A DNA stretch of 64,000 nt from Bifidobacterium gallicum DSM 20093 = LMG 11596 (GTDB lineage Bacteria; Actinomycetota; Actinomycetes; Actinomycetales; Bifidobacteriaceae), in NCBI RefSeq assembly GCF_000741205.1, contig NZ_JGYW01000009.1:1-64000 (forward strand), written 5' to 3'. The notes under the pieces were generated by a model. The model searched no databases. It was not told the origin of the DNA and saw only the letters and a program-made list of their open reading frames with translations. The position numbers and the translations under genes are program-made. Of this stretch, positions 16,198 through 28,584 are shown in pieces (position 1 is the stretch's first letter; every line of letters begins with the position of its first letter).

Positions 16198-17997
16198 GGA
16201 TCATCCCCGCGCTTGCGGGGAGCACTTCCGCTTCTTGCCATTGGAAAGCGAAGTCTTTGGGATCATCCCCGCGCTTGCGGGGAGCACCGACACCACAGAA
16301 GCTGAGGGTTCACCCGATTAGGATCATCCCCGCGCTTGCGGGGAGCACCTGGTTCACGCTGTCGGTGACTTCGTACACCTGGGATCATCCCCGCGCTTGC
16401 GGGGAGCACACAGAGCATACCCCCCAAGCGCGTGGATCGCGAGGATCATCCCCGCGCTTGCGGGGAGCACGGCCGCGAATTGTGCCGGCTCCGTCATCGG
16501 CTGGGATCATCCCCGCGCTTGCGGGGAGCACCGGATGCTCACATCGAGCCACGACGCGGCTCCGGGATCATCCCCGCGCTTGCGGGGAGCACGAGTATGG
16601 CCTGCACGCCATTGATGCCGAACTGGGATCATCCCCGCGCTTGCGGGGAGCACGTCGATGTAGGTGGCCTTGGCGGTGATTCTCAGGGGATCATCCCCGC
16701 GCTTGCGGGGAGCACCGTGAACCACTGATCGAGGTCGAAGGCCACGCAGGATCATCCCCGCGCTTGCGGGGAGCACCATGAGTACGATGGCGAGCACGTC
16801 TCTCACGTGGGATCATCCCCGCGCTTGCGGGGAGCACGTTTGACTTATGCGCAACATTCCGCGGTTTTGGGGATCATCCCCGCGCTTGCGGGGAGCACCG
16901 ATGTCCACGTGCACATTGCGGTCACGTCCCGGGGATCATCCCCGCGCTTGCGGGGAGCACACGAAAAAACAGCGTAGTTTTGCGCATGAAACAGGATCAT
17001 CCCCGCGCTTGCGGGGAGCACTTGCCTGAAAATATTGGCGCGACCAAACCTGAGGGATCATCCCCGCGCTTGCGGGGAGCACTGGGGCTACGTCGAACGC
17101 GATGAGCCACCGGCGGGATCATCCCCGCGCTTGCGGGGAGCACCGAGTGTGCGCTGCCAGACGCGGCGGGTCTTGGGGATCATCCCCGCGCTTGCGGGGA
17201 GCACGCGAAAAAGCATTATCTGGAGGACTGCGACGCGGGATCATCCCCGCGCTTGCGGGGAGCACGGCACCAGCGTCCACGCGCAGTTCGAGCGCATGGG
17301 ATCATCCCCGCGCTTGCGGGGAGCACCCTACGGCGTGCAGTTGCGCGACGAGCGTCGTGGGATCATCCCCGCGCTTGCGGGGAGCACTACGACGCGACGG
17401 ACCATCCCAGCAGTACAGGAGGATCATCCCCGCGCTTGCGGGGAGCACGCGGGTGGAGCGAAGCGAGCAAGACGTGCACGAGGATCATCCCCGCGCTTGC
17501 GGGGAGCACCCGTGCACAGTCGCGCCTACAGGGCTCTGGCTGGGATCATCCCCGCGCTTGCGGGGAGCACGAGGATGAGCCTGGGCTGGGCACGATCGGC
17601 GTGGGATCATCCCCGCGCTTGCGGGGAGCACGAATGCAAGCTGACACTATTTTCAGCCCCCTGAGGATCATCCCCGCGCTTGCGGGGAGCACCTATGATG
17701 GGGACACGCCGGACGTGTGGCTGTCGGATCATCCCCGCGCTTGCGGGGAGCACGTTCCCATGAACAAGCGCGCCGGACTGCCCCGGGGATCATCCCCGCG
17801 CTTGCGGGGAGCACGGAAGGCATCTACGTCGACGGCGCGGCCGTCGAGGATCATCCCCGCGCTTGCGGGGAGCACAGTGCACACTCCTGGGACATCGTGG
17901 GGCAGCGGGGATCATCCCCGCGCTTGCGGGGAGCACGTGAGGCCTCTCAGGGGGATGAAGCTGACACTAGGATCATCCCCGCGCTTGCGGGGAGCAC
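16198..17997 (-). CRISPR. Main type I-E CRISPR array, 30 repeats
   Basis: There are thirty 28-nt repeats at starts 16198, 16260, 16321 and on to 17970, at a 61-bp (sometimes 62-bp) period, with 29 spacers of 33-34 nt. On the minus strand each repeat starts GTGCTCCCCGC, has loop AAGC and ends GCGGGGATGATCC, a classic Cas6e hairpin. The orientation follows from the cas operon and leader on the right; newest spacers are near 17969. The base after the repeat (position 29) is C in 19, T in 9 and G in 1 of the 29 internal units. Such a skew is expected if this base is copied from the PAM, as in E. coli. Spacers 24 (17632-17664) and 29 (17937-17969) share AAGCTGACACTA. Confidence 0.98.
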
Positions 17998-18134
17998 CCT
18001 AAAAAATCCCAGTGGTTCCAACCATACCACATCCTGCTGATCATCGTTTTCCTTTAGTCTGTATATGATGCACGCAAACTCATGCGGCATAGGCAGAAAT
18101 CAAAATAGAATGGAAAACCCCCAGCAACGCAACA
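17998..18134 (-). promoter_or_regulatory. CRISPR leader
   Basis: This 137-bp non-coding stretch lies between the cas2 stop and the first repeat and is clearly richer in A/T than its surroundings near the array (GATTTTTTAGG directly precedes the repeat). Position and composition identify the leader that holds the array promoter and directs new spacer insertion. A TATACA box is seen on the minus strand near 18061-18066, but no convincing -35 partner was found. Confidence 0.75.
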
Positions 18135-18497
18135 TCACCGCCCTCCAAACTTGCGAGCGCGATGATAACGTGACGCTTTGCTCCATCCATCTTTACGGGA
18201 TCCGGAGAAACTGTTGTCACGGTTTTCCAAAGGGCGCCGCACCAAAGTAAGCCCATCCTCATCTTCAGGAGTCCAAGAACTGCGTAGAGTTCGGAACGCG
18301 AGGTGCTGTTCATTGCGGGCGCTGTATACCATGATGGCGCGTCCTTCCCGAACGAGTTCTTCAATGCGTTCCCAGAGTTTGTCTCGCACGCGGGCGCTGA
18401 CGTGTCCTACAAATACTCCTGGAGATATTTCCAGCAGCCAGCGTGTCAAGTCTCCGCGTAGTCCTGGAGGGCAGGCTGTCAGCACTATCACGACCAT
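18135..18497 (-). CDS. cas2: CRISPR-associated endoribonuclease Cas2 (type I-E)
   Basis: 120 residues. The N-terminus MVVIVLTACPPGLRGDLTRWLL is characteristic of the type I-E Cas2 family, with the ferredoxin-like fold. With Cas1 it forms the integrase that inserts new spacers. The C-terminus (about 95-120) is a basic tail, GSRKDGWSKASRYHRARK. It overlaps cas1 by 10 bp and has GGAGGAACC before its ATG. It is the last cas gene; the leader follows. Confidence 0.95.
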   Translation of the reverse strand: MVVIVLTACPPGLRGDLTRWLLEISPGVFVGHVSARVRDKLWERIEELVREGRAIMVYSARNEQHLAFRTLRSSWTPEDEDGLTLVRRPLENRDNSFSGSRKDGWSKASRYHRARKFGGR

Positions 18498-19588
18498 GGT
18501 TCCTCCATTTCCTCGTCATACACTGGCTCGGGCAGTTCAATAGGTTCAGGAATGTTCGCAAACGGTTCCCCTATTTCTAGGATTCCCTCTATCTCGTCGC
18601 TATCATCAATATCTCCGTACGATCGTCCAGCTTCAACCGTCCCTTCTTTGCCGTCCCAAAGATAGAGATTGTTTCCTTCATTCTCGGCGTCAGCGGCATC
18701 AAATAAATGATGAATATCCTTGACCATGCGGGGCATGATGGAGAGGTCATACATGGCATCTCGCATCGCTCGTCTCACCGCACCGCCAATATCATCCACT
18801 TCTGTTGCTGCTGTTTTGAATGCTACTGGAATGGATAATTCAGCTTTGTATAAATCCGCCATGTCATATACAAATGACAGTTCATGTCCCGTGTGCACGA
18901 ACCCGAGTCCCGGAGAGCATCCCAGTGCAACAATCACGGCGTGAGCGATTCCGTACAAGCAAATATTGGCTGCGGACAACGCTTGGTTGATTCGGTCTGA
19001 ATCCGCAAAATCTTCGGGTCTGTAATCTCGCCGTTCCCAACGAACCCCTGTTTGTTTGGACCAGTGCCGGTAGACGCGCCGCACGCGCGCCCCTTCCCTG
19101 CCGCGCAACTGTTGCATGGTCAGGTTCGACACATCTTCATGGGGAAAGCGCATCGCATACATAGCTCTCGCGACGCTGAGCCGTTTCCTCATATTGGTGA
19201 CGAGCTGTGCTTGCTTCTGGAGAAGGTTCGAAGAATGGGTCAAAGGTTTCCCGGAACAATATGTGCGTACTCCGCGCTCCCCTACCCAAATCACTGTGGC
19301 ACCATTGTCACCAATCACCATCATCGCCTGGTGGGTGACGCTGGTTCCAGGCCCTAGCATGAGCACGCTCAACGCCGCGGCAGGGATGTGTCGTACGCCG
19401 CGGTCATCCGTTACTGTAATCGCGTTGTTGTCTCGGTTGACGACGCAATGTTCGAAGTATAGGAACGTCAGCCGGTCTTCACAACGGACCAGCTCACCGA
19501 GCTCCGGTTTGGGGGTTCCGGCCCCTTTGTTCGGATTTGATCTGGGCTTCCCCGGTTCCGGGCTCGGCTGTGCTGGTTCATCGTTCAT
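18488..19588 (-). CDS. cas1: CRISPR-associated integrase Cas1 (type I-E)
   Basis: 366 residues, longer than the usual 300-310. The core runs from ELVRCEDRLTFLYFEHCVVNRDNNAITV through the catalytic helical domain (GFVHTGHELSFVYDMADLYK, which holds the metal-binding His and Asp). The first 30 residues are Pro/Lys-rich. The last 60 are strongly acidic (DDSDEIEGILEIGEP...DEEMEEPWS), an extension typical of some actinobacterial I-E Cas1 proteins. With Cas2 it acquires spacers. The ATG at 19588 has AAGGAAAA before it; the cas6e stop lies 37 bp upstream. Confidence 0.96.
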   Translation of the reverse strand: MNDEPAQPSPEPGKPRSNPNKGAGTPKPELGELVRCEDRLTFLYFEHCVVNRDNNAITVTDDRGVRHIPAAALSVLMLGPGTSVTHQAMMVIGDNGATVIWVGERGVRTYCSGKPLTHSSNLLQKQAQLVTNMRKRLSVARAMYAMRFPHEDVSNLTMQQLRGREGARVRRVYRHWSKQTGVRWERRDYRPEDFADSDRINQALSAANICLYGIAHAVIVALGCSPGLGFVHTGHELSFVYDMADLYKAELSIPVAFKTAATEVDDIGGAVRRAMRDAMYDLSIMPRMVKDIHHLFDAADAENEGNNLYLWDGKEGTVEAGRSYGDIDDSDEIEGILEIGEPFANIPEPIELPEPVYDEEMEEPWS

Positions 19589-19625: not shown

Positions 19626-20363
19626 TCATGGCGTCATGATTGGCGCCAATGTCATCAATCCGCAGCCAAACCCTTTCGCTTTGCCGATGCCGAAGCACAG
19701 CGCATGGCGTAGGGATTGAGGATCCTCTACCTGCAGGGTTCCTTCAAAAACAGCTGTGGATAAGGTGACTTGGTTCTTGCGGTCACGGAACTTGTGACGC
19801 TGCCGGTCAATCACTCGTACCGAGGACAGCAGCAGTGGATCCTTCACCTGTTCGTCAAAACCCGAGACAGGATCACGTTCAGGCAACGAGAATCCATTAG
19901 CTGCAGCGCGACGTTCAAACCAATCAATTTGTTGACGCACGGTGACATACGCCTGCCTGGAACCTTTCATCTTGTCAAATGTGGCCAGGCTGTTGTGGAG
20001 ATTGAGGTCCGTCGCCGCGTTGCGCACGGGATTGGCGCAGACGCGGTAATGCCACTGTTGTCCTTGTGCCAAGCGATCAAGGAACGGAGTGTAATCCTTC
20101 GTTTCCCATTCGGCGTACCCCGGCCAACCCGCTTGCTCCACAATATGGAGCAAGTCAGGTTGTGATGGACTGACCACATACAGCCAGACGCTATGGTCCT
20201 GCCGGTTATGGTCCAACCTCCACAAGATGCGCCCTTCATCGGTGGCCCGTGGCGCGTGCGGCGGGAAACTGGCTTCCACAGCCGCATGGAGTTTGTAGGG
20301 AGAAGCCGCCAATTGTCGAGCCCCGATACGCGCCATATTCAATGCGATTCGAGAAAGATACAT
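19626..20363 (-). CDS. cas6e: Cas6e (CasE) crRNA endoribonuclease
   Basis: 245 residues, within the family range. MYLSRIALNMARIGARQLAASPYKLHAAVEASFP is the typical opening, with the catalytic His of Cas6e in the KLHAAVE region. The C-terminus has the glycine-rich loop GIGKAKGFGCGLMTLAP. It cleaves each repeat at the base of the CCCCGC/GCGGGG stem, leaving an 8-nt 5' handle (ATGATCCY here), and stays bound to the crRNA in Cascade. It starts with CAAGGAG upstream, 16 bp after cas5e. Confidence 0.96.
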   Translation of the reverse strand: MYLSRIALNMARIGARQLAASPYKLHAAVEASFPPHAPRATDEGRILWRLDHNRQDHSVWLYVVSPSQPDLLHIVEQAGWPGYAEWETKDYTPFLDRLAQGQQWHYRVCANPVRNAATDLNLHNSLATFDKMKGSRQAYVTVRQQIDWFERRAAANGFSLPERDPVSGFDEQVKDPLLLSSVRVIDRQRHKFRDRKNQVTLSTAVFEGTLQVEDPQSLRHALCFGIGKAKGFGCGLMTLAPIMTP

Positions 20364-20379
20364 GGTCTTGTCTCCTTGC

Positions 20380-21132
20380 TCACATAAGGCTCATCGGGTC
20401 AGCTGCCCCGGTAAACTCTGGCGGACGGTTATCGGTTTGGCGCGCGGACGGCTCTGTGGCAGAGTCTTGCGTTGGGCAATCCACAAAATAGCGGCGTACC
20501 GGACGTTGCGCATACCGGCGATGCTTCTGACTGAAGCTCAACGGCATATCGGACTGCTGTCCCGTGGTTTCGCCATTTTCAACGGCATCCACCACAACCT
20601 GCAGCCGCTTGGAATCATGAACTTTTTTGCGGTACCAAGGCGACGCAATCCAAGGTTCCTTGTCCAGAGCCTCTTCCACATTGGCATAATCCTTGACCCC
20701 GAGGGACACTGGACTTGCCGGTGGACACGACCTGCGGCCCAGGAACAATGGCCACTGGGGATTGCGCAGCGCAGCATCTAACGACTCCAGCAACGAGCGT
20801 TCCCCCTCGATGGCCACAAGGAATTTGGCGTCTGCCAGATAGTAACGGTGAGTCAAAGGCATTGTGAGGGAGAATTCACCACTCTTCTTACGTGCGATGC
20901 TTTTTTCAGTCTGGAAGTCTCGCATGATTCTCCCAGGCTGGTCGGAACGCACCCCGAACCGTAAACCAAGCAGGTCTTCAATGGAATCCTCTCTGCGGCG
21001 ACCCTGAGCCGATGCCAGCAAGCCTATGACAGCACTTTTGGTCGGTTCAGTCCTCGTCTCTCTACGATTGAATCGCGACGAGTCACCCCAGGATTGCATC
21101 GGTCCTGCAAGGCGCAAGATCAATACACTCAT
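20380..21132 (-). CDS. cas5e: Cas5e (CasD) Cascade subunit
   Basis: The start ATG at 21132 (MSVLILRLAGPMQSWGDSSRFNRRETRTEPTKS) was chosen over the open frame from 21216, because homology begins there and AAGGAG lies upstream. 250 residues. It is the RAMP protein that caps the crRNA 5' handle in type I-E Cascade; LAGPMQSWG and the RRxTxxxPTKSAVIGLLASA block are the family hallmarks. The stop of cas7e lies 4 bp before its start, so translation is coupled. Confidence 0.96.
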   Translation of the reverse strand: MSVLILRLAGPMQSWGDSSRFNRRETRTEPTKSAVIGLLASAQGRRREDSIEDLLGLRFGVRSDQPGRIMRDFQTEKSIARKKSGEFSLTMPLTHRYYLADAKFLVAIEGERSLLESLDAALRNPQWPLFLGRRSCPPASPVSLGVKDYANVEEALDKEPWIASPWYRKKVHDSKRLQVVVDAVENGETTGQQSDMPLSFSQKHRRYAQRPVRRYFVDCPTQDSATEPSARQTDNRPPEFTGAADPMSLM

Positions 21133-21136
21133 GTTC

Positions 21137-22282
21137 TCACTGCTCCTTGGCGGCCAGTTCTTGCTGGAGCACCGTATCCAAGGACTCGACCATGACAGGT
21201 AGCGTGACATGCTCACTCAAGGAATCCAACAATTCCACGGGTTGACCTGCCACAATATTCCATGCGGCAATTGGAGTCTCACCATAGGTGTCTTGGATAT
21301 CCTGCAACTTGCGACCCAACCGTTCCGCGGCCACACGGGAAATGGACTTGTCTCGTTCAGCATGCACAGGACGTTCGAAGGCCTCAACAGGATTGATGGG
21401 CTGCGAATTACGCACAACCACCAGAGCTGCCGTGGGTAGCGTACGGTTGGCAAATGTGTTCTGCTTGCCGGTCGGCATTGACCTGAGGAACGCGTTGACG
21501 AACGCGTCCACAGCCTTGACAGTCATATCGGCACTCTGCAGCTGCTCATACAACGAATCCACAGCAACCGTGGCATAGCGATACAGTGTTGAGGAATTGA
21601 ATCCAACCGTATCCAGCATGGCCGCTCCCGCATTATCATCGGCAGCGTCATCATCAATAGCAGTGAAGTAATCATATTCCGGAGTCACTTCATCCACCGA
21701 AATCGCATGAGCAACTTGAGCTGAAGCATCCGTGTTCAATTCGGGAGCATCAGCCAACATGCGTCCGAACAGTGCGATATCCACAGCTTGCGGCCCGTGG
21801 AACACTGCCGACACCTGGCCTTTCATTTCTTTAGAAGGTTTGTCCAAATCTTCATCGGCATCAATCCAAGCAATAGCGAGATCAGCCAACTTATCAATTT
21901 CCCTGTTGGCAATGAAAATCAGGTATTGCGTGAGATCTGCACCTTCCATGGATCCCTTGCGCTTCGACTTCTCGACTTTTGCACCAGTAGCAGTCAACGC
22001 CGCGGTGGCAGCCTTGTGGACTGTTTCCACATCAATATCAGGCCGCTTGGCGACAATGCTCTGTTCAATCTGAGCTAACGCATTCTTGGTACGGATACCC
22101 AACTGATCGGCATCGAGCATCTCCGGGAACGCTTCACGCATGGCACGCTTCCACGCTTGGCTTGATACGCGGGCACGCAACACTCCGCCATAGATTGCAG
22201 TCTTCGGATTACCCGTGTCATCCCGATTGATGTTGCTTGGAGGCACATTCTGGATGGCATAAATTTCAACAATAGTGGTCAT
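21137..22282 (-). CDS. cas7e: Cas7e (CasC/Cse4) Cascade backbone
   Basis: 381 residues, the normal size. The N-terminal block VEIYAIQNVPPSNINRDDTG then PKTAIYGGVLRARVSSQAWKRA is diagnostic of Cse4/CasC. Six copies coat the spacer RNA, one per 6 nt, and their thumbs flip out every sixth base. The start has AAGGAG nine bases upstream. A 70-bp gap separates it from cse2 and holds a perfect stem-loop at 22312-22338, which may adjust mRNA stability for this high-copy subunit. Confidence 0.97.
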   Translation of the reverse strand: MTTIVEIYAIQNVPPSNINRDDTGNPKTAIYGGVLRARVSSQAWKRAMREAFPEMLDADQLGIRTKNALAQIEQSIVAKRPDIDVETVHKAATAALTATGAKVEKSKRKGSMEGADLTQYLIFIANREIDKLADLAIAWIDADEDLDKPSKEMKGQVSAVFHGPQAVDIALFGRMLADAPELNTDASAQVAHAISVDEVTPEYDYFTAIDDDAADDNAGAAMLDTVGFNSSTLYRYATVAVDSLYEQLQSADMTVKAVDAFVNAFLRSMPTGKQNTFANRTLPTAALVVVRNSQPINPVEAFERPVHAERDKSISRVAAERLGRKLQDIQDTYGETPIAAWNIVAGQPVELLDSLSEHVTLPVMVESLDTVLQQELAAKEQ

Positions 22283-22311
22283 GACGACTCCTTAAACAAT
22301 ATCGATAACGT

Positions 22312-22338
22312 ATTGATTGCAAATCAGCGGCAATCAAT
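22312..22338 (-). promoter_or_regulatory. Intercistronic stem-loop upstream of cas7e
   Basis: ATTGATTGC (22312-22320) and GCAATCAAT (22330-22338) are perfect complements with a 9-nt loop. It is in the only sizeable gap of the cse1-cas2 operon, between cse2 and cas7e. There is no U-tract, so processing or 5'-end protection of the cas7e message is more likely than termination. Confidence 0.55.
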
Positions 22339-22352
22339 CTTGTATTGGGTTC

Positions 22353-22991
22353 TTATTTGTTGGATGATTCAGCATTCCGCTGGGATTGGCGATAGTGGTA
22401 ATCCATGCTCCAACGCTGGAACACGGCACCCCGGGAGTCCGGGAACTGCATCAGATACAAATCCCGGGCCAGACGCCCATAATCCAGAGCGATTGGGTGC
22501 TCTGTACTACGCATAAGCATGATGAGTGCGCGAAGATACCAAGCGGTGCCTTCAAAGGTGGGCGCGTTCTCTGCAGCATTCAATCTGCGGACCACACCTT
22601 TATCCTCATCGGAGCCTTCAGCGATGAACTGACAGGCTTTACCGAATGAAATCGGATAATATTCGCCCTCTTCTTTGCGTAACTGCGCCACACCATAATC
22701 TTTGGACTGCTGGTGTACGGCATACAATCCGAGTGCTGTGGTGATAGCTTTGACCAAGCGGGAGTCATGCTCGGGGTCTCCCAGCATGTCTTCCGGCCAT
22801 GCATCAAAGATTACCGCGCCAGCAGCCAGCCAGTCCGTATGTGCCGGATCTGCGCATTTGCGAAGATTCGCCAGAACGGCACGGACATCAGCGCTGGCAC
22901 CTCCATTGCCGACATACTCTTGCTGCATGTTGCGCACGAGACGGTTCACGTATGTTTGCACGCCACGTGCTTTGTCACTGCGTTGGAGCAT
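22353..22991 (-). CDS. cse2: Cse2 (CasB) Cascade small subunit
   Basis: The ATG at 22991 (MLQRSDKARGVQTYVN) has GGAAGGGG six bases upstream; an ATG at 23024 has a weaker site. 212 residues, all-helical in character as expected. Two copies form the belly of type I-E Cascade and stabilise the R-loop. WPEDMLGDPEHDSRLVKAITTALGLYAVHQQS and KACQFIAEGSDEDKGVVRRLNA match the CasB family. The gene overlaps the end of cse1 by 17 bp. Confidence 0.94.
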   Translation of the reverse strand: MLQRSDKARGVQTYVNRLVRNMQQEYVGNGGASADVRAVLANLRKCADPAHTDWLAAGAVIFDAWPEDMLGDPEHDSRLVKAITTALGLYAVHQQSKDYGVAQLRKEEGEYYPISFGKACQFIAEGSDEDKGVVRRLNAAENAPTFEGTAWYLRALIMLMRSTEHPIALDYGRLARDLYLMQFPDSRGAVFQRWSMDYHYRQSQRNAESSNK

Positions 22992-24675
22992 CTTCTTCCC
23001 CTTCCGTTGGTATGGAATGTTCACTCAGCGACCCCAAGTTCTCCTTCAGTCGGTATTTCAGGGTCAACATGGCCTGCCCCGCGTCCACGCGACGCCCGTT
23101 CTCCTCATGGAATGAGAAGGACTGAGTCGGCGACTGATCCAGATAATCTTGCGCAAGTCGCAAGAGCAACCTATGGATTTCATCCTTCCAAGACTTGCAG
23201 TACGCCAGCGCATCATCATCAGATCGATATTGGGCCAATCGTTCGCGAAACACTCCGTCAAGTGCCGCATAAGCCTCTTCAGCAATCTGCATCCGGGTAT
23301 CAGTACGCCTGTTTTTGCTGTCACTATCTGCGCCGCTGGCAACTTCAAGACGGAACGCGAAGGTACCTAGATCTTTCACCGACTGTTCAGTGGCAGCGAC
23401 CACATCCAGCACTCTGCCGATAATGTCACCACCGCTGCGTAGCATCTCACTACTTAATTCCAGAGAATCATCGTATGACGCTTCAAACACTGAACTTTGC
23501 GTGCCATAGGTCATGCCTTGGGCAATGATGCCTATAGTTTGCAATAGATGCTTCTCGCGCAATTCAGGAATCTCGTCAAAGAGTCGGTCCAACCAACGTA
23601 GCACTCCAGGACGTGCCGAATTTTCCGAATCGGCGACCAGCAGCGGCCCCAATGAACGCCACAATGCCTTGCCTGCTTCGAAGGTCCGAGGCATTACCAC
23701 AGGTGCATTGCCCTCACCCTTCTTTGGTTTGGACACTCTCCAAGAGGTATGCATTTCTGCAATTTGTGTGTATGCAGGACGGATAATATCGCCATAACAA
23801 ATCACAAGGCCAATAACCTGCGTACCGGCTTCATTGCATACCAATCGGATACGCCGTGACTGCACAGTCAACGCATCGACCATGCCACGGAAGCCATCTC
23901 GAACCACAAGGTCATGTTCCGGCGGGGTGTCAAGTTCCCAAGGAGCACGATCATAGGTGGATTCAGACAGTTCTGAAGTCAAAGGGTTAGATATGACCCA
24001 GTTCAACATAATTGTTTCGAACAGGTTAGATCCTTCTGCCCACACGCTACCGATATTGCCAAGCCACCCTACCGATGGCACTCCTTGCGGCGCAAAGGCT
24101 TTTCCCTTGTTAATTGCAGAAAACCCTTCCACGGGGCTCTTGATGCCTGCAGTATCGTAAGCCATGATCGTAAGCAGCTGTCGTGCTGCCTCAGCGAAAT
24201 CCAGCCCTTCCAGCGTTTCTGGATTGCGCAACGAGAACAATCCCGTACCTTTAGGCACGTCCAGAATCATTGTCTCCACACCGTCATATGCCTTTTTGCC
24301 GACATATTCCAAATCCGGCACTTGGTAGAACGGTGTCTTGCTATCGAACAACTCGAATTTAGCTTCATACTTGTTCAAGTATGCGTTGATGATCTCCAGA
24401 TCGAATTCGCCAAGATCCCAGAATTCTTGCCACAATGCATAGCATTCCGATGGAGCCACATCGATTTGCTCCATTTCATAAGCGCGCATCCAGATTGCTT
24501 CAAACAATCGATACAGCACAGCTTTTTGCAATGGATTATCAGTAACAATCGCAACGATATGCGACGCCTGCTCAAACGACTCACGCAAGCTTACAACAGC
24601 GCGAGTCGCATCATCATAGACCACAGGAATCCAAGGATCATTCACCAAATTGAATTGAGGTTGGATAGCCTTCAT
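22975..24675 (-). CDS. cse1: Cse1 (CasA/Cas8e) Cascade large subunit
   Basis: 566 residues, the normal size. It opens with FNLVNDPWIPVVYDD, the signature of CasA, and ends in a helical bundle. It recognises the PAM and recruits Cas3. It is the first gene of the cse1-cse2-cas7e-cas5e-cas6e-cas1-cas2 operon, with AGGGAGG upstream of the ATG. A near-consensus promoter (TTGCGA-N17-TATAGT) and a perfect inverted repeat lie in the 107 bp between this gene and cas3. The same promoter is matched by the spacer of the small RNA at 27910-27996. Confidence 0.96.
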   Translation of the reverse strand: MKAIQPQFNLVNDPWIPVVYDDATRAVVSLRESFEQASHIVAIVTDNPLQKAVLYRLFEAIWMRAYEMEQIDVAPSECYALWQEFWDLGEFDLEIINAYLNKYEAKFELFDSKTPFYQVPDLEYVGKKAYDGVETMILDVPKGTGLFSLRNPETLEGLDFAEAARQLLTIMAYDTAGIKSPVEGFSAINKGKAFAPQGVPSVGWLGNIGSVWAEGSNLFETIMLNWVISNPLTSELSESTYDRAPWELDTPPEHDLVVRDGFRGMVDALTVQSRRIRLVCNEAGTQVIGLVICYGDIIRPAYTQIAEMHTSWRVSKPKKGEGNAPVVMPRTFEAGKALWRSLGPLLVADSENSARPGVLRWLDRLFDEIPELREKHLLQTIGIIAQGMTYGTQSSVFEASYDDSLELSSEMLRSGGDIIGRVLDVVAATEQSVKDLGTFAFRLEVASGADSDSKNRRTDTRMQIAEEAYAALDGVFRERLAQYRSDDDALAYCKSWKDEIHRLLLRLAQDYLDQSPTQSFSFHEENGRRVDAGQAMLTLKYRLKENLGSLSEHSIPTEGEEDAPTQ

Positions 24676-24704
24676 CGCCCTACACCTCCCTTCTATTTAC
24701 AGAA

Positions 24705-24736
24705 ATGGATATGCAGCTTCAGCGCTGCATATCCAT
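24705..24736 (-). promoter_or_regulatory. Perfect inverted repeat at the Cascade promoter start site
   Basis: ATGGATATGCAGC (24705-24717) and GCTGCATATCCAT (24724-24736) are perfect 13-bp arms around TTCAGC. The repeat begins one base past the -10 box, so it spans the predicted transcription start and the first 25 nt of the leader. It could be an operator for a dimeric repressor or a 5'-end hairpin of the cas mRNA. Confidence 0.75.
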
Positions 24737-24737
24737 G

Positions 24738-24766
24738 ACTATAACAGAAGAATGATAAGTTCGCAA
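24738..24766 (-). promoter_or_regulatory. Promoter of the Cascade-cas1-cas2 operon
   Basis: On the minus strand TTGCGA (24766-24761) and TATAGT (24743-24738) are separated by exactly 17 bp, a near-ideal sigma-70-type promoter facing cse1. No promoter of comparable quality is seen elsewhere in the cas region. Confidence 0.8.
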
Positions 24767-24783
24767 CTGATAGTAGTTAATAT
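24765..24783 (+). promoter_or_regulatory. Predicted Cascade autorepression site (PAM and protospacer)
   Basis: The plus strand reads AAC (24765-24767) followed by TGATAGTAGTTAATAT (24768-24783). It matches spacer positions 1-5, 7-11 and 13-16 of the crRNA-like RNA at 27910-27996. Positions 6 and 12 mismatch, exactly the bases that type I-E Cascade flips out and does not read; matching stops at 17. The PAM bases AA are shared with the -35 box of the cse1 promoter. AAC agrees with the C/T preference at repeat position 29 in the arrays. Confidence 0.72.
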
Positions 24784-27700
24784 CATGACTGTGGGTTGCG
24801 AATATGCTTCAGACCGGTTTCCGATCCATACTGCAGGCGTTCTCCCAGAACAATTCCCTCATACATGTCCAGACCACCGGCAGGCTGCAATATGAGGGGC
24901 AATACGCCTTCAAGCATTGGGGATTCTTGCCATGCCATGGCATAGTGGCCTCCAGTGCGTTCCAAATCCTCAATAATCGCCTCGATGCAATCACCATCGT
25001 TCTTGGGATGGGTCAGTGACAGCGGCAATCGAATCATTTGCCCTAACATGGCGTCCACAATGCGACTATTGGGTATCGTGTCAGCTGGAACTACAGGGCC
25101 TAATCCGCCATCTTCGTCCAGCACATGCAGCACCCCATCCTCGTCTTGCACCAACAACATCACTTCCAACGATTCCTGAGCATCACGAACAGCCTGCATG
25201 CCGCGCTCTTCACCTTGCCGGTCCAGCAAACCAGCGCGACCGAAAAAATCAACCAGCGTTTCCTTGGAAGCCAGCATCGTATCCAATTGTTTCAGGCAAT
25301 AGTCAGTTGCCCTTTTCTGCTTACTTTCATCATGTTCATCCCGAACCTGAACTGCTTTCTCATATGAGGCATGCCATTGTTCGGGGATACGCTCACATGC
25401 ATCCGCCCCATACGCTTCGCGCACCACAACAGCAATATCCTCCGGCAGTAATTGCTCAGAACAAGCCTGTTCATCAGTGATATCCAGCACTGTGAGCGCT
25501 TCCATCAGCGACGCCTTCTCATATACATGGGATACGCCGTTGTCAAATGTCGGGGTTTGCCATGATGTAACGCCACGCACATAACATTCGGGGATGGCCA
25601 CACGCGGGGGTCGTTGTGATCGCTCATGGCGGTGCATGCGCCCTACGCGCTGCATAATCAGGTCCACAGGAGCAATGTCACTAATCATGAGGTCCACATC
25701 AATATCCAAGGATTGCTCCAGCACCTGTGTACCGACAACAATCAGACAGTGGGGGCGCTTGCCGTTTTCCAATGTGGCCGCGTTTCCCAGCATGTGCAAG
25801 AGTTGCTCTTCTTTGGAACGTCGGTCATCGTCGGTAAATCGCGCGTGCAAAAGCATCACCTCATCCGCTGCATACTGATCTTGCAATGCTTCATACACTT
25901 TCTGTGCCCTACCGACCGTGTCACACACCACTGCGGCGCAGCCGCCCTCACGCAACTTATCTTGCAACAAGGCGCACAATTCTTCGATATCGTCGCCCAT
26001 AGCGTTGAATCGCACGGTTTGCGACCTGCCACTTGGAGCCACAGCGGCATGATGGATATGCATCCCGTCCGTGTAACTGATCAGAGGGTATGCTATCCGG
26101 GAATCTGTTTCTTCGGTCTCAGACCCACCCATGGATTCCGGGGGGTGTTGCCGTTTCTTACGCCCCCGTATAGAACCGGTACGCAATTGTGCATGATTCA
26201 TTTGGTATTCCCATGCATGCTCGGCTTTACGCCCGCGCATATAAGCATCAAGGTATGCCTCACGCAATGCCGGTGGTAGCGTTGCCGATAAAAGAACTAC
26301 CGGTACTTGCAAACCGCCCAGCCAAGTGAGCACACATTCCAGATATTGCTGCATGTATCGGTCATAGGCATGGCATTCATCGACAACGACTATTTTGTTG
26401 GCTAAGGCGAGGTCTCGCAACGCCACATGTTTCATTTGCAATGCACCCATAAGCACGTGGTCTACTGTGCAAATCAGGAAGTTGGCCAGCGGGCCTTTCT
26501 TGCGGCCCCATAGCCAGTCAGCCACCATGGTGTTGCTCTTCCGTGGTGCAGTTTCGTCATACACGGATGCCATTGATTTTGATTGAGCAATGAGACCCCG
26601 AAATTCACGATTACGTGTCGCCTTGCCATGCGACAGCCACACGGATTTATCAGTATCAGAGGGCAATGCATCCAACCAGGAGTGCACACGCGTGAACATC
26701 GGATCCGTGGTGGCCATTGTCGGCAATGCGACGCAGACACCTCCCGCTTGTGTTTTTGCGGCGAGTATTTCGGCAGCCATCAGAGCGGCTTCTGTTTTGC
26801 CCTCACCCATAGGCGCTTCGACAATCATGATGCCTGGCTGCTCCACAGCATTGCACAGCTCAACAACCTTTTTTTGCATGGGACGCATTTGCGCCTGCTG
26901 AGGCATATTGAATCGTTGCTGGAACCAGTGCTGCACCGCTTGTGCATTATCGAGATCTTCAAGCGCTGACGCTTGCCATGCTGGAGTCAGCTTTGCCGTG
27001 CTCCATCCGCGCTCCCCACGCTCACGCAGTTCTCGAAATTCACTAGGCGCCGACTTCTCCGCTGAAGCGCGCGCGGGGAAGAGAGGAAACATTCCCGCGT
27101 CACTATTACTGGCAATCCAATCGGCCATGATGACCATACCTGTGATAATCAAGGCGACATGGGATCCGAGCTCTAGTGTTCGAAGCCGCTGCATATCGGC
27201 ATCTGTCAATCCGCTGATTTGGATTGCGAATGCAATTAGCTCCCGTTGTACTTCCTGCCATAGGGAATACGCATCACTACTTCCCATTTCCGCATTTCTT
27301 TTGTAAGCATCACGAAGTTTGCCGGTTTCAGCCGGACGGCCATGATGGCCACCAACAACACTCGCATAAGAGCGAGCGCCCCGCTGCGTAAATCCATAAG
27401 TATCTGTGAGATACCGCTCAAGAATGAGTTCACCTGCAATGGTGTGATAGGGTTCAACCCCTTCCAGATAAGGACTGAATGGCAATCCCGCTTGTTCAGG
27501 TTTCCAAGCCATGGACTTCACACCATCCACATCACCAGATATATGAATGGAACGATTTTGGAAAATTGGCGTGGCTTTGCCGATATCATGCACAGCAGCC
27601 AGAAATATCACCACTTTGCGCGCCAAATCATAATCATTGTTGAAATTACGGGTGATTGTTCGTTTCGTATGCTCAGGCAGCCATTGATACCACAATCGAT

Positions 27701-27842
27701 CCGCCACAAACCCCGCGTCATGCATATGCACATACAATGGCGACCATTGTTCGCCCGTTTGCCTATCAGTTTTTCCCCATATGGAGCGCGCAGCCTCAGA
27801 AAGGTCGATTGAGCCTTGTAATTTCTTGAATGGCTCTACCAT
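24783..27842 (-). CDS. cas3: Cas3 nuclease-helicase (type I-E)
   Basis: The start is ATG 27842 with ACGAGG six bases upstream; a GTG two codons earlier is also open. 1,019 residues. The N-terminal HD nuclease domain is complete (HAxxVADRLW; VHDIGKATPIFQNR; VGGHHGRP). The SF2 helicase follows: Walker A PMGEGKTEAAL, DECHAYD, SATLPP and QRVGRMHRHE. Cas3 is recruited by Cascade-bound R-loops and degrades target DNA. It is transcribed in the same direction as the Cascade operon but apparently from its own promoter, since a strong promoter lies between cas3 and cse1. The predicted RNA gene terminates 70 bp upstream of its start. Confidence 0.97.
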   Translation of the reverse strand: MVEPFKKLQGSIDLSEAARSIWGKTDRQTGEQWSPLYVHMHDAGFVADRLWYQWLPEHTKRTITRNFNNDYDLARKVVIFLAAVHDIGKATPIFQNRSIHISGDVDGVKSMAWKPEQAGLPFSPYLEGVEPYHTIAGELILERYLTDTYGFTQRGARSYASVVGGHHGRPAETGKLRDAYKRNAEMGSSDAYSLWQEVQRELIAFAIQISGLTDADMQRLRTLELGSHVALIITGMVIMADWIASNSDAGMFPLFPARASAEKSAPSEFRELRERGERGWSTAKLTPAWQASALEDLDNAQAVQHWFQQRFNMPQQAQMRPMQKKVVELCNAVEQPGIMIVEAPMGEGKTEAALMAAEILAAKTQAGGVCVALPTMATTDPMFTRVHSWLDALPSDTDKSVWLSHGKATRNREFRGLIAQSKSMASVYDETAPRKSNTMVADWLWGRKKGPLANFLICTVDHVLMGALQMKHVALRDLALANKIVVVDECHAYDRYMQQYLECVLTWLGGLQVPVVLLSATLPPALREAYLDAYMRGRKAEHAWEYQMNHAQLRTGSIRGRKKRQHPPESMGGSETEETDSRIAYPLISYTDGMHIHHAAVAPSGRSQTVRFNAMGDDIEELCALLQDKLREGGCAAVVCDTVGRAQKVYEALQDQYAADEVMLLHARFTDDDRRSKEEQLLHMLGNAATLENGKRPHCLIVVGTQVLEQSLDIDVDLMISDIAPVDLIMQRVGRMHRHERSQRPPRVAIPECYVRGVTSWQTPTFDNGVSHVYEKASLMEALTVLDITDEQACSEQLLPEDIAVVVREAYGADACERIPEQWHASYEKAVQVRDEHDESKQKRATDYCLKQLDTMLASKETLVDFFGRAGLLDRQGEERGMQAVRDAQESLEVMLLVQDEDGVLHVLDEDGGLGPVVPADTIPNSRIVDAMLGQMIRLPLSLTHPKNDGDCIEAIIEDLERTGGHYAMAWQESPMLEGVLPLILQPAGGLDMYEGIVLGERLQYGSETGLKHIRNPQS

Positions 27843-27909
27843 TGGCACCTCGTTTCCCCCGCTTCAATACCTCTTCTATATTGCTGCGTTGAAATCCACC
27901 CTACACCAT

Positions 27910-27996
27910 AAAAAAAATCGGGCCACCATTAGGAAGCCCGATATCCCCTGGAAATCAGGGGAACACGCATATATCAACTAATATCACGGATCATCC
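27910..27996 (-). ncRNA. CreR-like crRNA mimic predicted to guide Cascade to its own promoter
   Basis: Reading the minus strand, GGATGATCC (27996-27988) equals the last nine bases of the CRISPR repeat and so keeps the crRNA 5' handle. A 20-nt spacer (27986-27967) follows. A second pseudo-repeat starts GTGTTCCCC at 27966 (repeat: GTGCTCCCC) and folds as CCCCTG-ATTTC-CAGGGG, then GATATC. It runs straight into an intrinsic terminator, ATCGGGC/GCCCGAT (27942-27936 with 27923-27917) plus eight U. A candidate promoter TTGTCA (28023-28018)-N17-TATTGG (28000-27995) overlaps the first pseudo-repeat, so transcription may start close to the handle. The spacer matches the cse1 promoter (see 24765-24783). 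CreR RNAs guide Cascade to repress cas genes in other type I systems; CreA of CreTA toxin pairs is the alternative. No expression data are available. Confidence 0.72.
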
Positions 27997-28168
27997 AATA
28001 CTCACAAAACCATGATTTGACAATCGGGTTTCACTGATTGGAACAACATATATGCACAGTTCACTGTATCTTACTTTTCTTCAAATCTTCCCATGTTCGC
28101 TTCCCTGAGTGAAAGCAATCCATGCTCTACCCTCTATAACCATCTATATATAGACACAAGGAGGAACG

Positions 28169-28309
28169 ATGAGCAGCAGCACGGTATCAGCTAGCGTCGC
28201 ACCGGTAACAAAGAATGTAGCAAAACAACATAATCCGCAAAAAGGGACTAACTCCTCACTCATGCAGTGCAGCACAATAACACAGTATTCGTCAGCCCAT
28301 TGTCATTGA
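28169..28309 (+). CDS. Small ORF with strong ribosome site near the crRNA-like gene
   Basis: 46 codons from ATG 28169, preceded by AAGGAGG at ideal spacing and by an A/T-rich TATAAC/TATATATAG stretch. The peptide is Ser/Thr-rich (MSSSTVSASVAPVTKNVAKQ) with three AGC codons directly after the start. It overlaps the PIN fragment in another frame. It may be the leftover start of a decayed gene. A role as a guarded toxin partner of the crRNA-like RNA was considered, but the RNA's spacer shows no match to its promoter. Confidence 0.35.
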   Translation: MSSSTVSASVAPVTKNVAKQHNPQKGTNSSLMQCSTITQYSSAHCH

Positions 28310-28584
28310 AAGATTTGTACTATATTGGCGCCAAACGATTTGGGCGTGACGCTATGCGCATGGCAATCCAGTCCATTGTGACAATCTGCACGGTAACTGA
28401 TTGTTCTTCTATTGACTGCATCAATGCCGCTGATTCCAACGAGCCGGACTTTGAAGATGATCTCATTCGTGCAACTGCGGAACGCTTGAACGTTGATATC
28501 ATCATCACTCGTGATGAAACAGCATTCAGCCATAGCCTCGTCCGTTCGATGAATGCTGAACGATATTTGGAATTATTCACATAA
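28267..28584 (+). pseudogene. PIN-domain (VapC-like) fragment lacking its N-terminus
   Basis: 105 codons open from a GTG at 28267, directly after an in-frame TAA. SPLSLKDLYYIGAKRFG and SNEPDFEDDLIRATAERLNVD then IIITRDETAF match the middle and end of PIN toxins, including the acidic ED and the RDxxxF end of the active site. The N-terminal D-x-N that supplies the first catalytic Asp is absent and cannot be recovered upstream in frame. It resembles the fragment at 50549-50947 (SLKDxYYIxAKRxG; SNExDFEDxLxRAxAExL). Confidence 0.65.

What the first reader, a model, noticed from the sequence alone, without database searches (positions are those of the whole stretch)
27910..27996. Unannotated mini-CRISPR RNA that appears to aim Cascade at its own promoter (CreR-like autoregulator)
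Seen: a pseudo-repeat end identical to the repeat's last nine bases (GGATGATCC), a 20-nt spacer, a second pseudo-repeat opening GTGTTCCCC with a 6-bp CCCCTG/CAGGGG stem, and a perfect terminator with eight U, all on one strand between cas3 and the PIN fragment. The spacer's first 16 bases match 24768-24783 as TGATAxTAGTTxATAT. The only two mismatches, 6 and 12, are the positions type I-E Cascade does not read. An AAC PAM precedes the target. Known: CreR RNAs in other CRISPR types limit cas expression with short partial matches that allow binding but not cleavage. Inference: Cascade loaded with this RNA represses cse1-cas2, so cas levels follow crRNA supply and rise when Cascade is inhibited.
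Basis: partly seen in the sequence, partly recalled or inferred. Interest (0 to 1): 0.96.

Follow-up and report, generated by a model that had tools for sequence, protein, structure and literature searches.

The report
RNA guide aimed at cas promoter
A bacterium of the genus Bifidobacterium carries a tiny one-spacer CRISPR RNA gene whose guide fits the promoter of its own CRISPR defence genes, and many relatives keep the same kind of match with different letters, so it is very likely a self-regulator of an already described kind (CreR).

Summary
On the minus strand at 27996-27910 lie a repeat end (GGATGATCC), a 20-nt spacer, a degenerate repeat with a Cas6e-type stem, and a terminator. The spacer's first 16 bases match 24768-24783 except at positions 6 and 12, after an AAC PAM that overlaps a predicted -35 box of cse1. 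No other such site exists in the 2.0-Mb genome.

The decisive test was comparative. Of 121 type I-E loci scanned, 58 have such a mini-CRISPR beside cas3/cse1 (45 distinct). Of the 43 kept, 39 match their own cas3 or cse1 promoter region at 11 or more of 16 positions. Positions 1-5 and 7-11 match at 0.74-1.00, position 6 at 0.41, position 12 at 0.31; 34 of 39 have an AAN PAM. Foreign guides rarely match. The pattern persists in pairs that cannot form a hairpin. Guide and target also changed together twice among close relatives.

This is how Cascade reads DNA, so a CreR-type autorepressor is strongly supported; transcription and repression are untested. Type I-E CreR is already published: a new member of a known kind.

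The parts
27988..27996 (-). 5' half-repeat GGATGATCC, source of the crRNA 5' handle (ATGATCC plus G at 27987)
   Evidence: identical to the end of the array repeat
27967..27986 (-). 20-nt guide (spacer) of the CreR-like RNA
   Evidence: matches the cse1 promoter at 14 of 14 read positions
27943..27966 (-). 3' degenerate repeat with Cas6e-type stem-loop
   Evidence: 7-bp stem in the fold; one change in the first nine bases of the repeat
27910..27942 (-). intrinsic terminator, hairpin plus U8
   Evidence: sequence and fold; not reported by the scan
24768..24783 (+). protospacer-like target, mismatched only at 6 and 12
24765..24767 (+). PAM AAC, overlapping the predicted -35 box read on the minus strand
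   Evidence: AAC is the published PAM of B. pseudocatenulatum type I-E
24738..24766 (-). predicted cse1 promoter TTGCGA-17-TATAGT
   Evidence: consensus match only
24783..27848 (-). cas3
   Evidence: Cas3_HD, DEAD, Helicase_C, Cas3_C
22975..24675 (-). cse1 (cas8e)
   Evidence: CRISPR_Cse1 E 2e-86
19626..23024 (-). cse2, cas7, cas5, cas6e
   Evidence: Pfam matches for all four
18488..19588 (-). cas1
   Evidence: Cas_Cas1 E 7e-18
16198..17997 (-). CRISPR array, 30 repeats of 28 nt

Best explanation
A CreR-type autorepressor of a type I-E system. Shown by sequence: the mini-CRISPR, its terminator, the seed match plus AAC PAM at the cse1 promoter, and co-variation of guide and promoter in relatives. 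Inferred: a short RNA made from 27996-27910 is trimmed by Cas6e at its 3' stem and loaded into Cascade. The complex binds next to and over the -35 box of the cse1 promoter through about 14 base pairs and blocks RNA polymerase. The pairing and guide are too short for Cas3 cutting. Cascade supply thus limits itself, and expression rises when ordinary crRNAs compete for Cas proteins or an anti-CRISPR protein disables Cascade.
For: 14/14 read positions match, unique in the genome. Of 121 loci, 58 have a structural mini-CRISPR (45 distinct). With a finder using common repeat ends and at most 2 mismatches, 47 of 121 loci pass, against 1 of 242 shuffles and 0 of 119 coding controls. Targets chosen with all 16 positions weighted alike and no PAM rule: 39 of 43 reach 11 or more; match rates at positions 1-12 are 0.95 0.87 0.90 0.97 0.97 0.41 1.00 0.92 0.74 0.90 0.95 0.31; 34 of 39 are AAN. 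S14 of 12 or more: own promoters 28 of 43, sampled foreign promoters 18 of 1075, shuffled guides 1 of 645. In the 14 of these whose geometry allows no hairpin, position 6 matches in 3 and position 12 in 0 of 14, against 11-14 of 14 at each of positions 1-5 and 7-11. Compensatory changes: L064-L068, guide base 4 with a synonymous Tyr codon in the target; L183, guide base 17 with target base 17. Published work matches: CreA pairs at 1-5 and 7-11, with 6 and 12 dispensable and the PAM inside a promoter element; E. coli Cascade off-target sites match position 6 at 45%.
Against: No RNA or reporter data. The 5' half-repeat has no stem, so the 5' end cannot come from ordinary Cas6e cleavage, and no convincing promoter puts the start at the handle. 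None of the other 44 distinct mini-CRISPRs shares this guide, so co-variation is shown for relatives, not within this species. 63 of 121 loci showed no mini-CRISPR. In 4 of 43 (L065, L103, L136, L189) the best match is under 11 of 16, and 5 of 39 best sites lack AAN. L044, L103 and L136 have 32-nt spacers between good repeats and may be array pieces. With 4 mismatches allowed the finder also fires in 6 of 119 controls and 3 of 242 shuffles (53 of 121 observed), so a few of the looser elements are probably chance.
Confidence: 0.88

Rival explanations
1. The shared 16-mer is a pair of operators for a DNA-binding regulator, not a guide and its target.
For: The target has partly inverted ends (TGATA...TATCA) and both sites lie outside or at the edge of genes.
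Against: Across loci the match drops at 6 and 12, begins one base after a repeat handle on one side and after AAN (34 of 39) on the other, and its letters change freely between lineages. An operator would not be expected to do this.
Confidence: 0.03
2. Spacer and target form an RNA hairpin, such as an attenuator, rather than a guide and its DNA target.
For: In 20 of 32 good pairs guide and target are inverted and less than 600 nt apart, so one transcript could pair them.
Against: In 12 of 32 they are direct repeats (8) or lie further than 600 nt apart (4, this window included); there positions 6 and 12 match in 2 of 24 cells against 118 of 120 at positions 1-5 and 7-11.
Confidence: 0.02
3. A CreTA- or CrePA-like antitoxin RNA that represses a toxin, for example the neighbouring PIN gene, with the cse1 match secondary.
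For: A PIN_3 fragment lies just upstream; such modules exist.
Against: The PIN gene lacks the start of the domain; the only AAN-seed site in the own genome is the cse1 promoter. In relatives 32 of 45 guides have a good AAN site at the cas3 or cse1 promoter region, though other targets were not sought systematically there.
Confidence: 0.03
4. A decayed remnant of a CRISPR array that no longer makes a functional RNA.
For: Lost stem in the 5' repeat, single spacer.
Against: Intact 3' stem and own terminator, 14/14 match to the promoter at 5e-6 expected, and 20-21-nt guides in 28 of 32 good pairs, which random remnants would not be expected to have.
Confidence: 0.04

Closest known systems
CreR, cas-regulating RNA from mini-CRISPRs, types I-B, I-E and V-A (Liu et al. 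2023, doi 10.1016/j.chom.2023.08.005; paper not held, seen only through passages of three reviews)
   Same: Mini-CRISPR, partial match to a cas promoter, type I-E included
   Different: Whether the bifidobacterial loci were in that survey could not be checked; here no experiment, and the 5' repeat has lost its stem
CreA of CreTA modules, type I-B (PMC8501985, abstract and two sections read)
   Same: Pairing at 1-5 and 7-11, 6 and 12 free, PAM inside a promoter element, degenerate repeats
   Different: Represses a toxin RNA; archaeal I-B; here the target is the cas operon
Off-target Cascade binding in E. coli type I-E (PMC5904413, passages)
   Same: AAG PAM plus a short seed is enough to bind; an off-target site with partial pairing was tested for, and not associated with, primed adaptation; position 6 matched 45%
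   Different: Accidental sites; here the pairing is conserved and lies at cas promoters

Membership tests
CreR | crRNA-like gene with degenerate repeats outside the array, near cas genes | tested here: met
CreR | partial complementarity plus PAM at a cas promoter | tested here: met
   (the promoter itself is a consensus prediction)
CreR | guide-promoter pairing kept by co-variation in relatives | tested here: met
CreR | 8-nt 5' handle on a processed RNA bound to Cas proteins | not testable with these tools
   handle letters present; RNA not seen
CreR | represses cas expression; relieved by crRNA abundance or anti-CRISPR proteins | not testable with these tools
   needs reporter assays
CreTA / CrePA | guide aimed at a toxin promoter | tested here: not met
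   sole AAN-seed site in the genome is the cse1 promoter
Canonical CRISPR array | several intact repeats with spacers of about 32 nt | tested here: not met
   one 20-nt spacer, degenerate repeats

The most novel reading that the evidence does not exclude
CreR guides are a standing part of many actinobacterial type I-E loci, repeatedly moved, flipped and re-aimed between the cas3 and cse1 promoters. In part of the Bifidobacteriaceae the PAM is formed by the start of the -35 box (8 of 22 minus-strand targets meet a consensus rule), so the promoter cannot escape repression without damaging its own -35. The 20-21-nt guides, about two 6-nt units short, would build a dedicated short Cascade that can bind but not license cutting.
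Probability: 0.35. Interest if true: 0.65.

Novelty: new member of a known kind. Interest (0 to 1): 0.52.

Why it matters
It gives natural, evolution-tested evidence that Cascade acts as a promoter repressor in type I-E systems of Bifidobacterium and Coriobacteriia, and a catalogue of pairs showing which guide positions matter. It is also practical: editing or crRNA over-expression with these native systems would be expected to change cas expression through competition with CreR.

Tried and rejected
Operator, hairpin, toxin-guard and array-remnant readings were considered (see rivals). Rfam had no match up to E = 1 in 24600-28400. The promoter scan found no good CreR promoter. The array searched against phages for an own PAM gave one weak 69% hit, not useful. 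The first genome-contig scan found nothing; the alignment query worked. The strict seed rule was replaced by a count over 16 positions, because it missed pairs with one seed mismatch (L036, L034).

Rows dropped. One search scanned 121 of the 132 loci with Cse1; the rest had no cas3 hit beside cse1. One search used 43 of 45 distinct mini-CRISPRs; L035 and L057 fell out by repeat mismatches and spacer length. The 32 good pairs leave out 13 of 45: L035, L044, L053, L057, L065, L067, L068, L086, L103, L136, L180, L186, L189. L065, L067 and L068 are clear relatives of L064 whose true site scored 10 or was tied or beaten; L053 has an AAG site that scored lower on S14; L035's likely CreR was missed by the later finder. 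L050 has a likely pair seen by eye that no finder counted. The 121 loci include the same genome under two handles in several cases; distinct mini-CRISPRs were counted once. Foreign-promoter controls (25 sampled loci per guide) include near-copies, which raises the control. A wish to say that the PAM usually forms the -35 box was cut back: 8 of 22.

Full report
What is there. The window holds a type I-E locus on the minus strand: cas3, cse1, cse2, cas7, cas5, cas6e and cas1 by Pfam, cas2 by eye only (the one ORF tested for it, 18080-18364, had no match), and an array of 30 identical 28-nt repeats. Upstream of cas3, on the same strand, lies the reported element at 27996-27910. Its letters are as described, and the RNA folds into the Cas6e-type stem and the terminator.

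The target. The 20-nt guide matches + strand 24768-24783 at 14 of the 14 positions that Cascade reads, failing only at 6 and 12, with AAC in front. It is unique in the 2.0-Mb genome. The site lies between cas3 and cse1, directly upstream of a promoter-like TTGCGA-17-TATAGT. The PAM, read on the other strand as GTT, supplies the first two bases of the -35 box. AAC is the PAM reported for type I-E of B. pseudocatenulatum from 15 protospacer hits; the same paper notes variability, with AAC or GAAG (PMC7284854, passages). So the PAM is probably a normal one, and what limits the outcome would be the short pairing or the short guide.

Relatives. 33 of 112 genomes of the genus have Cse1, and 50 of 189 of the family. 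I scanned 121 loci with cas3 next to cse1. 58 hold a handle, a spacer of 14-39 nt and a repeat start with a stem, outside the detected array; 45 are distinct. With common repeat ends and at most two mismatches, 47 of 121 pass, against 1 of 242 dinucleotide shuffles and 0 of 119 control stretches; with four, 53 of 121 against 3 of 242 and 6 of 119.

Do guides fit their own promoters? For 43 of the 45, I took the best 16-nt match in the cas3 and cse1 promoter regions, weighting all positions alike and ignoring the PAM. 39 of 43 reach 11 or more. Among these, positions 1-5 and 7-11 match at 0.74-1.00, position 6 at 0.41 and position 12 at 0.31; 34 of 39 are preceded by AAN. Taking one row per seed cluster (27), positions 6 and 12 match at 0.37 and 0.30, with AAN in 24. 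Scored on the 14 read positions, own promoters reach 12 or more in 28 of 43, sampled foreign promoters in 18 of 1075, shuffled guides in 1 of 645.

Geometry check. Because many guides and targets are inverted and close, they might merely be hairpins. Of the 39, 14 are direct repeats or over 600 nt apart; in these, position 6 matches in 3 of 14 and position 12 in 0 of 14, against 11-14 of 14 at each of positions 1-5 and 7-11. Three of the 14 (L058, L068, L086) or so carry weaker or doubtful sites, two of them without AAN. In the stricter set of 32 pairs, positions 6 and 12 match in 21 of 64 cells against 306 of 320 for 1-5 and 7-11; this set was chosen on read positions and AAN, so it illustrates the pattern rather than tests it. 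PAMs there are AAC 23, AAT 8, AAG 1, and guides are 20 nt (15), 21 nt (13) or 31-33 nt (4). The free positions are near chance, so they drift rather than being selected to mismatch.

Compensatory changes. In five related genomes (L064-L068) the guide starts TCTGT in three and TCTAT in two, and the target, inside the 3' end of cas3, changes with it through a synonymous Tyr codon, while position 6 stays mismatched in all five. L065 and L066 are sisters (97/93). In the L078/L092/L181/L183 group the guide is constant over its first 16 bases and the target varies at 6, 12 and 15; L183 differs at guide base 17 and its target carries the same change.

Layouts. Among 32 pairs, 17 have the RNA gene between cas3 and cse1 aimed at the cse1 promoter region, 10 upstream of cas3 aimed at the cas3 promoter region, 3 (this window, L064, L066) upstream of cas3 aimed at cse1, and 2 on the opposite strand. 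On a Cse1 tree of 43 rows, 12 of them labelled none or weak, the labels need 16 changes against 22.8 when shuffled, so the element has probably moved or been re-aimed several times; several branches are long and their places unsure. In 8 of 22 minus-strand targets the PAM forms the start of a -35-like hexamer followed, 17 nt on, by a -10-like one.

How it most likely works. Cascade carrying this RNA binds at the cse1 promoter and keeps RNA polymerase off. Published work fits: unit-length crRNAs supplied by transcription work in E. coli without Cas6e (PMC4499155, abstract); guides shortened to 24 nt repress without interference or priming in a type I-B system (PMC10989794, abstract); and CreA pairs at 1-5 and 7-11 with 6 and 12 free. 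Not shown here: the RNA, its 5' end, Cascade loading, repression, or response to crRNA or anti-CRISPR levels.

What is known. CreR RNAs of types I-B, I-E and V-A are published (Liu et al. 2023, known to me through passages of reviews). A 2026 review of CRISPR in bifidobacteria had no occurrence of the terms CreR, mini-CRISPR or autoregulat- in its main text. A search with CreR, Bifidobacterium, Gardnerella and CRISPR (any three) listed 12 of 78 papers, none holding CreR; the other CreR searches listed reviews and CreTA work. Whether the original survey included these loci is open. The finding is therefore a well-supported new member of a known kind.

Noticed in passing
24697-24744: Inverted repeat (21-nt arms, 6-nt loop) between the predicted -10 box and the cse1 start codon; possible mRNA structure or operator.
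   Followed up: no
28267-28584: PIN_3 domain fragment lacking the start of the domain, divergent from the CreR-like gene.
   Followed up: partly
L074, L076, L077, L079, L081, L084, L088, L089: In Coriobacteriia the CreR-like gene lies just downstream of its own target, so it may repress its own promoter as well as cse1.
   Followed up: no
L034, upstream of cas3: A second array with another repeat (GGAAGAAGCTAATTTCC..., spacing 64) lies beside the type I-E locus.
   Followed up: no
window 16198-17997: The repeat equals that listed for B. gallicum DSM 20093 (PMC4521832, passages), but L034 and L044 share it too; species not settled.
   Followed up: partly
L050, upstream of cas3: By eye: handle GAGTGATCC A, guide GGGTTTATGTGG against AAG GGGTTAATGTGT at the cas3 promoter, again failing at 6 and 12.
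   Followed up: no
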